A stretch of DNA of 44,787 bases from Alphaproteobacteria bacterium (lineage in GTDB: Bacteria; Pseudomonadota; Alphaproteobacteria; Micavibrionales; Micavibrionaceae), in contig JAIXWE010000091.1 in the NCBI GenBank assembly GCA_027482195.1, forward strand, positions 1 to 44,787. The letters run 5' to 3'. This document shows, piece after piece, positions 36,756 to 41,993 of this stretch. The notes below the pieces were generated by a model that was given only the letters and a program-made list of their open reading frames with translations, had not been told where the DNA came from and did no database searches. A program made the translations under genes and the position numbers. Numbering within the stretch: position 1 is the first letter of the stretch; the number at the start of each line of letters is the position of its first letter.

Positions 36756-38255
36756 TTATGGAATTCTGTTGAAATATCCGGCTCCGCCCAGCTGACGATC
36801 CGGAATAATGCTGCCGCTCTCATTCAACATCCCCGATACGGCTTCATAAGTAAGGGCGGCCCCCGGCGCACCATTGCCCACCAAACTTCCCGCAATCTGA
36901 CCAAAACAGGCGCGCCCTTCCCCTTGGCACGCATCGCCCGTCACATTCGCACCGAACATGAACTGACCGTAAGACGGCCCTGAGGTTAAAATCACATCCG
37001 AAGGTTCGGAGTTTGCGTCTTTAAAGATACGCCATGTTGCATCGGGCATCGCCGCAATCAGATTTATTCCAATGGTTGGAATGAATCCCGAAAAATTGAC
37101 GGTGAGATTGCCACTTAAATTTCCTGGCGCTGTTGATCCATCCACATAAGTGGGGCGCGTTGCGGCGGCCAGCTCATAAACCGCCACACCTTCTGTTGGA
37201 ATGTTTTCAGGAATATCACCCAGCGCATAATGCAATCCTTGATTGCGGCTTAATGTCCGCTCCTTCAAAGCCTCAGACGCAAATGTGTCGGCCACAATGA
37301 CGGTTCCATCCGTGATCCGACCAATTTGCCAGCTTTCATTTCCTTGTGCCTCGGCGATACGTGCCGTGACACGCTCCACATAATCATTCCAAAACCACAC
37401 GGATGAATCTTCGGTAATGCGTTTTGGCATTCCTTCCTCATCAAACTCAATATTCTTACGCGAAATTGCAAACGTATCCGATTGCGCATTTTCAAATGTG
37501 CGGTGATTGCTTCCTGCTTTCAAAGCGCCTTGAAGCGCAATCGCTGTTGGTGGGTAAAGTGGCCGCGCGCCCGCATCATCATCACCATCATCCTCATCTG
37601 GAATAATCGGATCATTGCCACTTCGGTTAAGAAAATCTTGCTGTGCGGAGAGAAGTGCGAGATCGGCCGCAACCTGGTTATTAATTTGATTATTTGTCGG
37701 TTGATTATTGAGGGGTGCGGAATCCGCTGAACCCGTTGAATTTGCATCGGGTGCGTCACCTTCCCCACCCGCGGCCGGCGCAATCGCCCCCAAAGATTCA
37801 AGTTCGGCTTGAGCCGTTTGTTGTGTGATTGAAAATTTTTGACCGGTTGAAAAATCACGCTTATCGCCCGGCGTTGTGATCGTCATTTGCCCTTGATACA
37901 CCTGACCCGATACATTATCCCCCGCCACAAATTGCAATTTCGTACCTGCATCAAGAAACATTTCTTTCTCATCATAAATGAGTGTGAGGGGCGTTTTATT
38001 ATCAAGAAAGACTTGAACATCACCACTGATAATTTCAATTTTTACCGGATTATCGCTTAAAATCCGAAAAATGCTTTTTTGTTGAAATTGAATCGCACCA
38101 TTCCCGATTTTCAGTTGCAAAACCGGTTCCTTCACCGTGATGAGTTCATAAACTGGTAAATTCTTATTCAAAGAAAAATCTTGAGAAAACAAAACCGGCA
38201 CAGCCAGCGCGGGAAAAGAAAAAATGAAAATAAGAAAAGCGAGAATGAGCGGCAT
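36756..38255 (-). CDS. FecR-domain exported protein with TbpB-like C-terminal barrel
   Basis: A 499-residue protein. Signal peptide [18 protein letters not shown]. Residues about 25-150 look like a FecR beta domain ([26 protein letters not shown]..., [21 protein letters not shown]). A linker rich in Asn/Gln/Asp follows (about 165-235). The last ~150 residues have the pattern [23 protein letters not shown]..-like (here [11 protein letters not shown]), [29 protein letters not shown], seen in exported proteins with small beta barrels related to transferrin-binding-protein B domains. Two Cys (ACQGE, ACFGQ) may form a disulphide. Its start overlaps by one base (TAATG) the stop of the TPR-barrel gene. 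Function inferred only: surface-exported protein. Confidence 0.7.
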
Positions 38256-39538
38256 TAAAATCTCCAGCGTGTTTGAATCTGTGTGACGGTGCGATCATAA
38301 GTAAAAAGGGAAACATCAGATTTCGCATGTGTGTAACGCACACTTGGCTCAATGCTCCATTGCTCCGAAATTTTGTATGTCATACGCGCACTGACATCAA
38401 ATTCACGGTCATCGCGCGGAGTTAAAAATAACGGATAATCTTTTTTAAAATCACGCACTTCATATCCGGTTGAAAGATTGAGGAAAAGATCAGGGCGGAA
38501 TGTTGCATTCATACCAAGGTTAAGACCGCGAAAATTATAATCTTGGTAATCAAATTCTTGTTGGCTCGCGGTCTCGCGACCACCATAACCCGCAACCGTC
38601 AAACGCGGCATGAATATAAAATCAAATTGATGTTGCAATTGCCCGCCAACAGTTAAACGCCCCATATCGCGATTTTCAGATGTGAAAGACGAAAGACCAT
38701 AAGATGTGTTGAGGGCGAAGACCGTGCGTGGTGCAATTTCTTTTTGCCATTGCCCAGCCAATGTCGCGGCGCGGCGATATCCGGAACGACCCAGTAAATT
38801 TTGCTGACCCTGTGCGATCAAGGCGAACACGCCATTCTCGGCGGTGCGATATTGCACACCGTAATCAACAGCAATGACATTCAAAGCCGAAACACTTTGA
38901 TTGTTATTGCGGCGCACGCCGATTTGAGCCGATGACAATGTTCCAAACGCCGCTGAATAAGGTTTAAAACGGCGTATGCCGACATCGATATTTTGAAAGA
39001 CGGACGATTGCGCTTGTGCCTCGTTTGATAAATTCGCGGGGCCAAGTGCCGCCAGTGCGGGAATAAGAATTTGATCATCGCTTTGCGCGGCGTTTGCGTT
39101 GCTGTCATATCCCACCCCCACCGCCACATCATATTGGGTGACGTCTGGCCCACCTTTTAACAGTGTTTCCAAACTGGTGGCCGCTTGTGAAAATGACGGC
39201 CGCAACGTGGGCGGTGTTTCCTGCGCTTGCGCAACTTGATCATAAAGACGGGCGGCAGCCGCGTGATCGCCCAAATTCACATACGCTTCGGCAAGGGCTG
39301 CGCGCGCGGCACCCAAGTTTGGATTGAGCGCCAAAGCACGTTGTAACGCCAAAACCGCCTCGCCATAGGCTCCGGACTCTAACGCCGCAACGCCTTCAAG
39401 ATAATGATCTTTCGCGGAAAGCCTTACAGAAGATGCAAAAGAATGTGTTGTAAGAAAAAAGAGACAGAATATAAAAATAACAAGACGCACAAAGATTTGC
39501 GCGCCTTTAAATCGCTTGATACCGAAATCCCCTACCAT
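38255..39538 (-). CDS. TPR and outer-membrane beta-barrel protein, SLAM/DUF560-like
   Basis: A 427-residue protein. The signal peptide (FVRLVIFIFCLFFLTTHSFA) is followed by about three TPR repeats (HYLEGVAALESGAYGEAVLALQRALALNPNLGAARAALAEAYVNLGDHAAAARLYDQV). The rest alternates aromatic/polar beta strands (GVGYDSNANAAQSDD, then barrel strands) and ends in TRWRF with terminal Phe, the BAM recognition signature of outer-membrane barrels. The layout equals surface lipoprotein assembly modulator (SLAM) proteins, which have N-terminal TPRs and a DUF560 barrel and move TbpB-type proteins to the surface. ATG 39538 has AGGGGC about ten bases upstream; 39586 in frame is less likely. Its stop is coupled to the FecR-domain gene. 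Confidence 0.78.
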   Translation of the reverse strand: MVGDFGIKRFKGAQIFVRLVIFIFCLFFLTTHSFASSVRLSAKDHYLEGVAALESGAYGEAVLALQRALALNPNLGAARAALAEAYVNLGDHAAAARLYDQVAQAQETPPTLRPSFSQAATSLETLLKGGPDVTQYDVAVGVGYDSNANAAQSDDQILIPALAALGPANLSNEAQAQSSVFQNIDVGIRRFKPYSAAFGTLSSAQIGVRRNNNQSVSALNVIAVDYGVQYRTAENGVFALIAQGQQNLLGRSGYRRAATLAGQWQKEIAPRTVFALNTSYGLSSFTSENRDMGRLTVGGQLQHQFDFIFMPRLTVAGYGGRETASQQEFDYQDYNFRGLNLGMNATFRPDLFLNLSTGYEVRDFKKDYPLFLTPRDDREFDVSARMTYKISEQWSIEPSVRYTHAKSDVSLFTYDRTVTQIQTRWRF

Positions 39539-39601
39539 TGTATGTATGCCCCTAAAAAAGTGACCTACAACAACCTTAAGATGCATACAATAAAAAATAC
39601 G

Positions 39602-39607: not shown

Positions 39608-39653
39608 TAACGCATGAATTTGATTAGTTTTTCGCTGAGTTTTGGGAGTTTTT

Positions 39654-40760
39654 ATGCGTAACTTGGATCCTGTTCTTCACCCCGCCCAGCCTTTGACCGT
39701 GGATTGCTCCGCCAATCCTTACGATTTGCGCCCCGCAGTTGCGGGGATCGTTGCACGAGTTGAGCAAGTTTCCAATCATCTGCGCTCCATCGGATCACAT
39801 CAAAAAATTGTTGTCATCATGGGGGAAGCTCACCCTATGCCAAGCCATATTCTTCTTCAGGCGGCTGTTTTAAAAGCGCTTCAAGAAAAACATCGGCTTG
39901 TTTTTGGATATGAGGAGCAGCATGATTTTTTAGGTCGCGCCGTAGAAATTTTTCTTGATGAAGATCTCAGCTACGCAGAAAAAGCGGCGCTTCGTGATCT
40001 GGATCATGATGGCAAAAAAAGCATCATGGGTTTTTTGAGTTTTTTTAAAGCTCCCCTTTCTCCGGTTGCAACCAATCTCATAAAATCTTTTATGCTAAAT
40101 TCCACCATCCCTTATGTCGCAACCGATGCGGCTGGTGTAAGAGGTAAAGCATATATTCTTGATCGCAATGATCCTTTGACAAAGTCTTTTATACCAAAAC
40201 AGGCTTGGTATTCTCCTCTTTTGGGTCGTGACATTTCAATGATTCTTCAAAGAGGGCTCGCAATTCGTAATAAAATGATGGCTCATCTCACCGCCGATTT
40301 TATGAAAGCGCATGACGCAGATATTGGCGTTCAGCATTGTGGCAAAGTTCATGTCTTGGGAAGAGATTATCCGTTTCCTTTTAATTTTTTAAGTGACAAG
40401 TATGAAAACAGCTTACACGCCGTTTTTTCGCAAGCGGGTCTTTTGCCGATTCCTGTTTTTTTAGAATGCAAAGCTTTTAGATCATCAAAATTATCACGTG
40501 AGGGGCTAAACGCTCTCAACGACGGTATTCCAATCATAGGCCTTGCAGAAGATAAATTTAAGCTAAGAAGAAAAGTCTCTCTAAAACAAGCTTTAGATGA
40601 ATGTGATGAACGGACTTTTATCAAAAAAATGCTGATAGAGTCGAAACTGGACTTAGAACTCTTTTCTCCCACACAACAGCTAAACGTGTGGAAGCTTTTT
40701 GGTAAAGGGGCGCCTTTATGGCTTGCCAAAGCGCGCGCTTGTAGCCCCACGGAAATGTAA
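39654..40760 (+). CDS. TIKI/TraB-like protein, paralogue 1
   Basis: A 368-residue soluble protein with no signal peptide or membrane segment. Motifs of the TIKI/TraB/EreA/ChaN-type fold are seen in order: IMGEAH (Glu58, His60), GYEEQH (85-90), IRNKMMAHL (204-212) and QHCGKVHVLG (227-236, His233). In that superfamily the GE-x-H and late H sit in the active site or bind metal or haem, but the specific reaction is not known for this branch. GGGAG precedes the ATG. It shares a nearly identical 58-residue head with paralogue 2 (start 40789). The C-terminal ~120 residues are unrecognised. The start at 39642 in the same frame is rejected for lack of a ribosome binding site. Confidence 0.78.
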   Translation: MRNLDPVLHPAQPLTVDCSANPYDLRPAVAGIVARVEQVSNHLRSIGSHQKIVVIMGEAHPMPSHILLQAAVLKALQEKHRLVFGYEEQHDFLGRAVEIFLDEDLSYAEKAALRDLDHDGKKSIMGFLSFFKAPLSPVATNLIKSFMLNSTIPYVATDAAGVRGKAYILDRNDPLTKSFIPKQAWYSPLLGRDISMILQRGLAIRNKMMAHLTADFMKAHDADIGVQHCGKVHVLGRDYPFPFNFLSDKYENSLHAVFSQAGLLPIPVFLECKAFRSSKLSREGLNALNDGIPIIGLAEDKFKLRRKVSLKQALDECDERTFIKKMLIESKLDLELFSPTQQLNVWKLFGKGAPLWLAKARACSPTEM

Positions 40761-40788
40761 CAAACTAAAACTCTCAAAGGTTTTTTTA

Positions 40789-41883
40789 ATGCGTAACTTA
40801 GATCCTGTTCTTCACCCCGCCCAGCCTTTGACCGTGGATTGCTCCGCCAATCCTTACGATCTGCGCCCCGCAGTTGCGGGGATCGTTGCACGAGTTGAGC
40901 AAGTTTCCAATCACCTGAGCAATATCGGGTCACATCAAAAAATTGTTGTCATCATGGGGGAAGATCATGAGCGCCCCTCGAATATACTTTTACAAGCGAG
41001 CCTTCTCAAATCCCTTCAAGAAAAACACCAACTTGTTTTCGGATATGAAGCCGAACATAGTTTTTTGGGAACCTTCTTAACAGATTATTTGGAAGGCGAT
41101 GAATATGATTTAAACACGCAAGAAATACTGATGCTGAGTAAGCTTGATGTAACGGGCGCTCAAGCAATTAAAACTCACCTGGCTTTGTCCGAGGATGAGT
41201 ATTCCCAGCACACAATCAAAAGTTTATTTTACTCTGTTCTTCAAATGCAAATTCCATGTGTTTTCTCGGATGCAGCAACATGCAGCTTTCATCTGGATAA
41301 AAAAGATCCCATCACACGCGCCTTCATGGGAGGAATCACCGGACACACACATCGCATTGCGTCAACTATTCACACAACCTCCCCAAAAGGGGTTGATATA
41401 CGCAACCGGGTGATGACACATCTTACATCACAATTTATGGAGCAACATGACGTGAGCTTAGCTGTTCAGCAATGTGGGGTTGCGCATCTTCTTGGTTGGA
41501 GCCCCGATTATAAATTTAACAACAGCCTCACTCACCACTTCACAAAAGCCGGGCATTTCGTCATTCCTGTTTTCCTTCAACAAAATGATGTTACTCTTGA
41601 TGATATTCCGGAAGAATCCTTTGAAGCTTTATCACAAGGCGTTTTTATTGAAGGCCTTGCTGATGATATCTTTAATGATGAATCTTCGTCCAAAAAGGAA
41701 AAGGCCTTTATTCGCAAGATGGGGGCTCAGTCTGAAACAAAGTTTCATGTCCTTACAGAGAACGAAAAGACAGATATCTGCTTGGAAATTGAAAGTTCAG
41801 CTCTTAATTGGATTACAATGGCCCGGCGATCCGTCATTCTTGAAAAGAAAAACTCATCAAGCCCTTGTTTCCAAGCCGCTTGA
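40789..41883 (+). CDS. TIKI/TraB-like protein, paralogue 2
   Basis: A 364-residue protein, 28 bases after paralogue 1 on the same strand, with CAAAGG before the ATG. Residues 1-58 differ from paralogue 1 at only two positions (44-45), while the rest is diverged. The same motif ladder is kept at the same residue numbers: IMGEDH (Glu58, His60), GYEAEH (85-90), IRNRVMTHL (204-212) and QQCGVAHLLG (227-236, His233). No signal peptide. The family call is by these motifs; function unknown. It is followed by tRNA-Cys. The frame open from 40699 overlaps paralogue 1 and is not used. Confidence 0.78.
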   Translation: MRNLDPVLHPAQPLTVDCSANPYDLRPAVAGIVARVEQVSNHLSNIGSHQKIVVIMGEDHERPSNILLQASLLKSLQEKHQLVFGYEAEHSFLGTFLTDYLEGDEYDLNTQEILMLSKLDVTGAQAIKTHLALSEDEYSQHTIKSLFYSVLQMQIPCVFSDAATCSFHLDKKDPITRAFMGGITGHTHRIASTIHTTSPKGVDIRNRVMTHLTSQFMEQHDVSLAVQQCGVAHLLGWSPDYKFNNSLTHHFTKAGHFVIPVFLQQNDVTLDDIPEESFEALSQGVFIEGLADDIFNDESSSKKEKAFIRKMGAQSETKFHVLTENEKTDICLEIESSALNWITMARRSVILEKKNSSSPCFQAA

Positions 41884-41919: not shown

Positions 41920-41993
41920 GGCGCGATGGCCGAGCGGTCAGGCAGAGCTCTGCAAAAGCTTGTAGGCCGGTTCGACTCCGGCTCGTGCCTCCA
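41920..41993 (+). tRNA. tRNA-Cys(GCA)
   Basis: 74-base cloverleaf: acceptor GGCGCGA with TCGTGCC, anticodon stem GAGCT/AGCTT around loop CTGCAAA (anticodon GCA), T-stem around TTCGACT, discriminator T and encoded CCA. Confidence 0.95.

What the first reader, a model, noticed from the sequence alone, without database searches (positions are those of the whole stretch)
39654..41883. Tandem TIKI/TraB-like paralogues with an almost identical head and diverged body
Seen: the first 58 codons of the two genes are nearly identical (two amino-acid changes, few silent changes), then the proteins diverge sharply, yet both keep GE-x-H, GYE..H, IRN..M.HL and Q.CG..H.LG at the same residue numbers. Known: TIKI/TraB/EreA-type enzymes use such Glu/His sites. 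Inference: a shared, recently homogenised N-terminal module (gene conversion or targeting function) joined to variable effector bodies. The two are not exported by any visible signal.
Basis: partly seen in the sequence, partly recalled or inferred. Interest (0 to 1): 0.75.

Follow-up and report, generated by a model that had tools for sequence, protein, structure and literature searches.

The report
Tandem TIKI-fold hydrolases with gene-converted heads
Two neighbouring genes, from a bacterium in the family of the predator Micavibrio, encode fast-diverging water-activating hydrolases of the Tiki/erythromycin-esterase fold; their almost identical starts come from one gene copying that stretch from the other, not from a shared delivery module.

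Summary
Genes 39654-40760 and 40789-41883 share a 184-bp, 95%-identical head and then drop to about 45-60% DNA identity. dS is 0.13 in the head and saturated (about 2.3) in the body, so a gene-conversion tract is well supported. It runs from the start codon to the catalytic GE-x-H and is found in no other genome of the order searched. AlphaFold models of both proteins (pLDDT 91-92) match only TIKI-superfamily structures at the top: BcR135/EreC, HopBA1, ChaN, RRSP. Glu58, His60, Glu87, Arg205 and His233 sit at the spacings of the EreC/RRSP catalytic residues and are 97-99% conserved in 94 otherwise very divergent relatives. The head belongs to the fold (first beta-alpha unit), so "common head plus variable effector bodies" is not supported. 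Full-length members were found only in this order (49 of 142 genomes, 1-7 copies, often tandem), which includes Micavibrio aeruginosavorus EPB and ARL-13. Between those two, dN of family orthologues is 0.08-0.31 against mostly 0.01-0.05 for neighbours. No export signal, secretion cluster or virus link was found. Most likely these are cytosolic metal-independent hydrolases with quickly shifting substrates: a new, lineage-specific family of a known superfamily. The substrate is unknown.

The parts
39654..40760 (+). Gene A, 368-aa TIKI-fold hydrolase (P0001)
40789..41883 (+). Gene B, 364-aa TIKI-fold hydrolase, tandem paralogue (P0002)
39649..39832 (+). Gene-conversion tract, copy in gene A (start codon to the His60 codon)
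40784..40967 (+). Gene-conversion tract, copy in gene B (95% identical)
39825..39833 (+). Gene A Glu58-x-His60 (GE-x-H, end of strand 1)
39912..39914 (+). Gene A Glu87 (end of strand 2)
40266..40268 (+). Gene A Arg205 (RN motif)
40350..40352 (+). Gene A His233 (GxxH)
40960..40968 (+). Gene B Glu58-x-His60
41047..41049 (+). Gene B Glu87
41401..41403 (+). Gene B Arg205
41485..41487 (+). Gene B His233

Best explanation
Genes A and B are tandem paralogues of a lineage-specific family of TIKI-superfamily hydrolases. They are predicted cytosolic, metal-independent enzymes in which His60, Glu87 and His233 hold a catalytic water, Glu58 tunes His60 and Arg205 stabilises the oxyanion, so that an ester, amide or peptide bond of a still unknown substrate is cut (mechanism inferred from EreC and RRSP). 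The family is duplicated and diversified quickly around a fixed active site. The near-identical head is a 184-bp gene-conversion tract between the two neighbours. It covers the first beta-alpha unit up to the GExH motif and is not a targeting module.
For: Fold: AF2 models with pLDDT 91.4 and 92.1, pTM 0.91. Top structural matches are all TIKI superfamily: gene A vs BcR135 2qgm Z 13.3 (227 aligned, 3.9 A), HopBA1 5t09 Z 12.6, EreC 6xcs Z 11.8, ChaN 2g5g Z 11.7, RRSP 6a7h Z 9.4; gene B gives the same set. Profile search of the PDB gives only ChaN 2g5g, aligned at GExH and the second Glu (E 0.035). 15 of 26 members hit Pfam PF04187 (best 2.7e-7), and one relative passes the Pfam cut-off over profile positions 9-204 of 213. 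Active site: E58, H60, E87, R205, H233 are 97-99% conserved in 94 members. Spacings H60-E87 = 27 and R205-H233 = 28 match EreC H50-E78 = 28 and R261-H289 = 28 and RRSP H3902-E3930 = 28 and R4001-H4030 = 29. Conversion: dS 0.13 vs about 2.3, p = 2e-9. Diversification: the four paralogues of this genome form one clade (SH-aLRT 98); dN between EPB and ARL-13 orthologues is 0.081 and 0.309 vs 0.009-0.051 for 10 of 11 neighbouring reading frames.
Against: No activity has been shown and no substrate is known. Spatial clustering of the residues was not measured. Structural Z of 11-13 is clear but not high, and unrelated P-loop folds reach Z 9. The ChaN branch of the superfamily binds haem, so the fold alone does not prove hydrolysis. 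Faster dN could partly be relaxed constraint.
Confidence: 0.72

Rival explanations
1. Prey-directed effectors: the proteins are delivered into prey by the predator and cleave a prey protein, like the injected TIKI enzymes HopBA1 and RRSP; the fast divergence is a predator-prey arms race.
For: HopBA1 is a top structural match for both models; RRSP shares all five active-site residues; the family lies in an order containing obligate epibiotic predators, is tandemly expanded and diverges quickly.
Against: No export signal is visible. M. aeruginosavorus ARL-13 is reported to lack type III and IV secretion systems (PMC3189940). No secretion genes recur next to family members; outside close relatives their neighbours are not conserved. 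Only about a third of the order's genomes carry the family.
Confidence: 0.15
2. Ere-like detoxification: cytosolic esterases that open macrolactones or other antibiotic or prey metabolites; copies diverge to match different compounds. (A special case of the best explanation, with the substrate named.)
For: The longest structural alignments are with BcR135 and EreC (227-236 residues); same catalytic residue set and spacing as EreC; Eres are soluble enzymes without export.
Against: The Pfam erythromycin esterase model has no match in the genome; there is no resistance-island context; sequence identity to EreC is about 11%.
Confidence: 0.2
3. ChaN-like haem or cofactor binding proteins rather than enzymes.
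For: PF04187 (ChaN) is the best sequence model; ChaN 2g5g is the only PDB sequence hit.
Against: No lipoprotein signal. The full hydrolase set Glu/His/Glu/Arg/His is kept in 97-99% of members.
Confidence: 0.06
4. The reader's module model: a conserved targeting head fused to unrelated effector bodies.
For: Sharp DNA boundary at codon 59.
Against: Bodies are homologous throughout; the head carries strand 1 and catalytic Glu58; the head is not shared at DNA level by any other gene of the genome or in relatives.
Confidence: 0.03

Closest known systems
Erythromycin esterase family (EreC; BcR135)
   Same: Fold over about 230 residues, GE(x)xH + Glu + Arg + His active site with nearly the same spacings, soluble
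   Different: About 8-11% identity, no Pfam PF05139 match in the genome, substrate unknown
ChaN / PF04187 Cofac_haem_bdg
   Same: Weak but real sequence similarity at GExH and the second Glu; same fold
   Different: No lipobox, extra C-terminal helices, most members below the Pfam cut-off; haem binding untested
HopBA1 and RRSP (TIKI-fold effector domains)
   Same: Fold; for RRSP also the 2His/2Glu/Arg set
   Different: No membrane-localisation lobe, no secretion system link, different lineage
TraB/PrgY and animal Tiki
   Same: Superfamily motifs (from general knowledge)
   Different: These are membrane proteins; A and B have no visible membrane segment; not compared directly here

Membership tests
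TIKI superfamily | Central parallel beta-sheet core flanked by helices, as in Ere/ChaN/RRSP | tested here: met
   top matches for both models are TIKI members, Z 8.4-13.3, though unrelated P-loop folds reach Z 9
TIKI superfamily | GE-x-H / Glu / Arg / GxxH active-site residues in order | tested here: met
   E58, H60, E87, R205, H233; 97-99% conserved in 94 members
TIKI superfamily | Active-site residues cluster in space | not testable with these tools
   model coordinates not exposed; strand/helix positions and spacings are compatible
Erythromycin esterase (PF05139) | Match to the family profile | tested here: not met
   no match in the genome, while 3 control genomes ring
Erythromycin esterase (PF05139) | Hydrolysis of macrolactones | not testable with these tools
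   needs an assay
ChaN (PF04187) | Score over the Pfam gathering cut-off | tested here: not met
   19.4 and 19.7 bits vs 27.7 for A and B; some relatives pass
ChaN (PF04187) | Cofacial haem binding, lipoprotein | not testable with these tools
   binding needs an assay; no lipobox seen in the sequence
Secreted TIKI effector (HopBA1/RRSP type) | Delivery by a secretion system or toxin scaffold | tested here: inconclusive
   no linked secretion genes near members, no T3SS/T4SS reported in ARL-13; delivery itself not testable

The most novel reading that the evidence does not exclude
A previously undescribed, predator-lineage-restricted arsenal of TIKI-fold hydrolases that duplicate in tandem, exchange sequence by gene conversion and diversify around a fixed active site in order to attack, or resist, molecules of bacterial prey.
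Probability: 0.2. Interest if true: 0.7.

Novelty: new member of a known kind. Interest (0 to 1): 0.4.

Why it matters
Gene families specific to Micavibrio-type epibiotic predators are hardly characterised. This one has a predicted catalytic mechanism, occurs in two cultured complete strains (EPB and ARL-13), and evolves faster in protein sequence than its neighbours, so it is a concrete, testable candidate for a predator-specific function. The clean conversion tract also warns against reading shared heads of tandem paralogues as targeting modules.

Tried and rejected
Searches that found nothing: Pfam PF05139 in the genome; NCBIfam (only chance-level hits); phage and plasmid records; viral contigs; PHROGs (1 of 26 members, weak); PADLOC (no meaningful hit); BFVD structures (nothing at E <= 0.001). 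A genome-contig scan with the whole-family alignment had no pattern conserved enough; with the narrow alignment it gave a single locus, from an unnamed alphaproteobacterial MAG. Hits elsewhere in the class and phylum cover only about 30-75 profile positions around GExH and were taken as generic superfamily similarity. Conserved neighbours were looked for in 20 loci; only close relatives share context. Gene conversion in other tandem pairs was tested and not seen. An assembly artefact was considered: the two heads differ at 9 scattered positions, so a simple collapsed repeat is unlikely, but raw reads were not available. The order name is inferred: two same-family genomes are single contigs of 2,481,983 and 2,458,610 bp; the first equals the ARL-13 length in PMC3189940, the second equals EPB from memory. 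The expression data for ARL-13 lie in supplementary files that could not be read.

Full report
What is there. The two ORFs are real and correctly placed: gene A 39654-40760 and gene B 40789-41883, same strand, 28 bp apart. They are followed by tRNA-Cys at 41920-41993. The proteins are 45% identical end to end. DNA identity is 95% over 184 bp starting 5 bp before each start codon and ending inside the codon of His60, then falls abruptly. Among same-residue degenerate codons 50/54 are identical in the head and 44/97 in the body (p = 2e-9); dS is 0.13 against about 2.3. Protein constraint does not hold silent sites, so a recent gene conversion (or an equivalent ectopic exchange) is the best reading. 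The upstream limit of the tract is the start codon, where homology between the two genes ends.

Is the head a module? No. In both models residues 26-45 form a helix, 52-58 the first core strand, and the GExH motif lies at the end of that strand. The structural alignments to BcR135 and EreC run from about residue 11 to 316 of gene A. The head is therefore part of the catalytic fold. Head DNA has only the two copies in this genome, and other genomes of the order match in fragments of at most 45 bp. Tandem pairs of relatives show ordinary, diverged heads. At protein level the head is moderately conserved family-wide (NPYDLRP and GExH), which fits its place in the core.

What the proteins are. Profile search of PDB sequences with the family alignment returns only ChaN 2g5g, with GExH and the second Glu in register. 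Pfam PF04187 (ChaN, Tiki superfamily) matches 15 of 26 members, best E 2.7e-7, and one relative exceeds the curated cut-off over profile positions 9-204 of 213. AlphaFold models are confident (pLDDT 91.4 and 92.1), and VIA-align puts TIKI members first for both: BcR135, HopBA1, EreC and ChaN at Z 11-13, RRSP at 8.4-9.4; unrelated P-loop proteins follow from Z 9 downward. In 94 distinct members almost nothing is conserved except E58, H60, E87, D158, R205, N206, G230 and H233. Spacings agree with the experimentally tested residues of EreC (E47, H50, E78, R261, H289; PMC7979712) and RRSP (E3900, H3902, E3930, R4001, H4030; PMC6254334). By those papers the chemistry is metal-independent activation of water by His/Glu, with an Arg near the active site. 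That A and B do this is inferred; the residues and the fold are shown by prediction and comparison.

Where the family lives. Full-length matches occur in 49 of 142 genomes of the order and in none of the sampled rest of the class or phylum. Two same-family genomes are single contigs of exactly the lengths of M. aeruginosavorus ARL-13 (2,481,983 bp; PMC3189940) and EPB (2,458,610 bp, from memory), so this is the Micavibrio lineage of epibiotic predators. Predation by the window's own organism is not shown. Copy number is 1-7, with tandem clusters in several genera. The four copies of this genome form one clade, which means lineage-specific expansion.

Tempo. Around the EPB/ARL-13 copies, 10 of 11 neighbouring reading frames have dN 0.009-0.051, while the two family orthologues have 0.081 and 0.309. 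The exception is the reading frame directly beside the pair (dN 0.18 with dS only 0.14), which may be a wrong-strand ORF call. Amino-acid identities are 85% and 59% against 91-99% for the others. dN/dS stays below 1 (0.08, 0.14), so positive selection is not demonstrated; the data show faster protein change around a fixed active site.

How it most likely works. Cytosolic hydrolases with fixed catalytic residues and a changing binding surface, acting on esters, amides or peptides met by the cell. Detoxification (Ere-like) is somewhat more likely than prey-directed effectors, because no export signal or recurring secretion neighbour was seen and ARL-13 is reported to lack type III and IV secretion. 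The effector reading is not excluded.

Verdict. Observation confirmed; superfamily assignment and gene conversion supported; module interpretation not supported. This is a new lineage-specific family inside a known superfamily.

Noticed in passing
L003:2554-3312 (-) (own genome C39, beside the third paralogue): A 252-aa protein without Pfam match carries GD..H, E, D, R and G..H motifs that look TIKI-like. It has relatives in 32 of 135 genomes of the order and a second copy in C122, but profile comparison with the A/B family gave no full match.
   Followed up: partly
L060:7019-7870 (-) and L061:6962-7831 (-): An ORF next to the EPB/ARL-13 tandem pair has more nonsynonymous than synonymous change (dN 0.18, dS 0.14); possibly a wrong-strand ORF or unusual selection.
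   Followed up: no
window 36756-39586 (-): Two adjacent minus-strand ORFs upstream of gene A: a TPR-containing protein with a probable outer-membrane beta-barrel part, and a signal-bearing protein with a FecR-like start (read by eye).
   Followed up: no
G116:C10:297440-298345, G115:C67:20293-21207, G059:C91:5872-6801: Family members with one in-frame stop, suggesting gene decay as well as birth.
   Followed up: no
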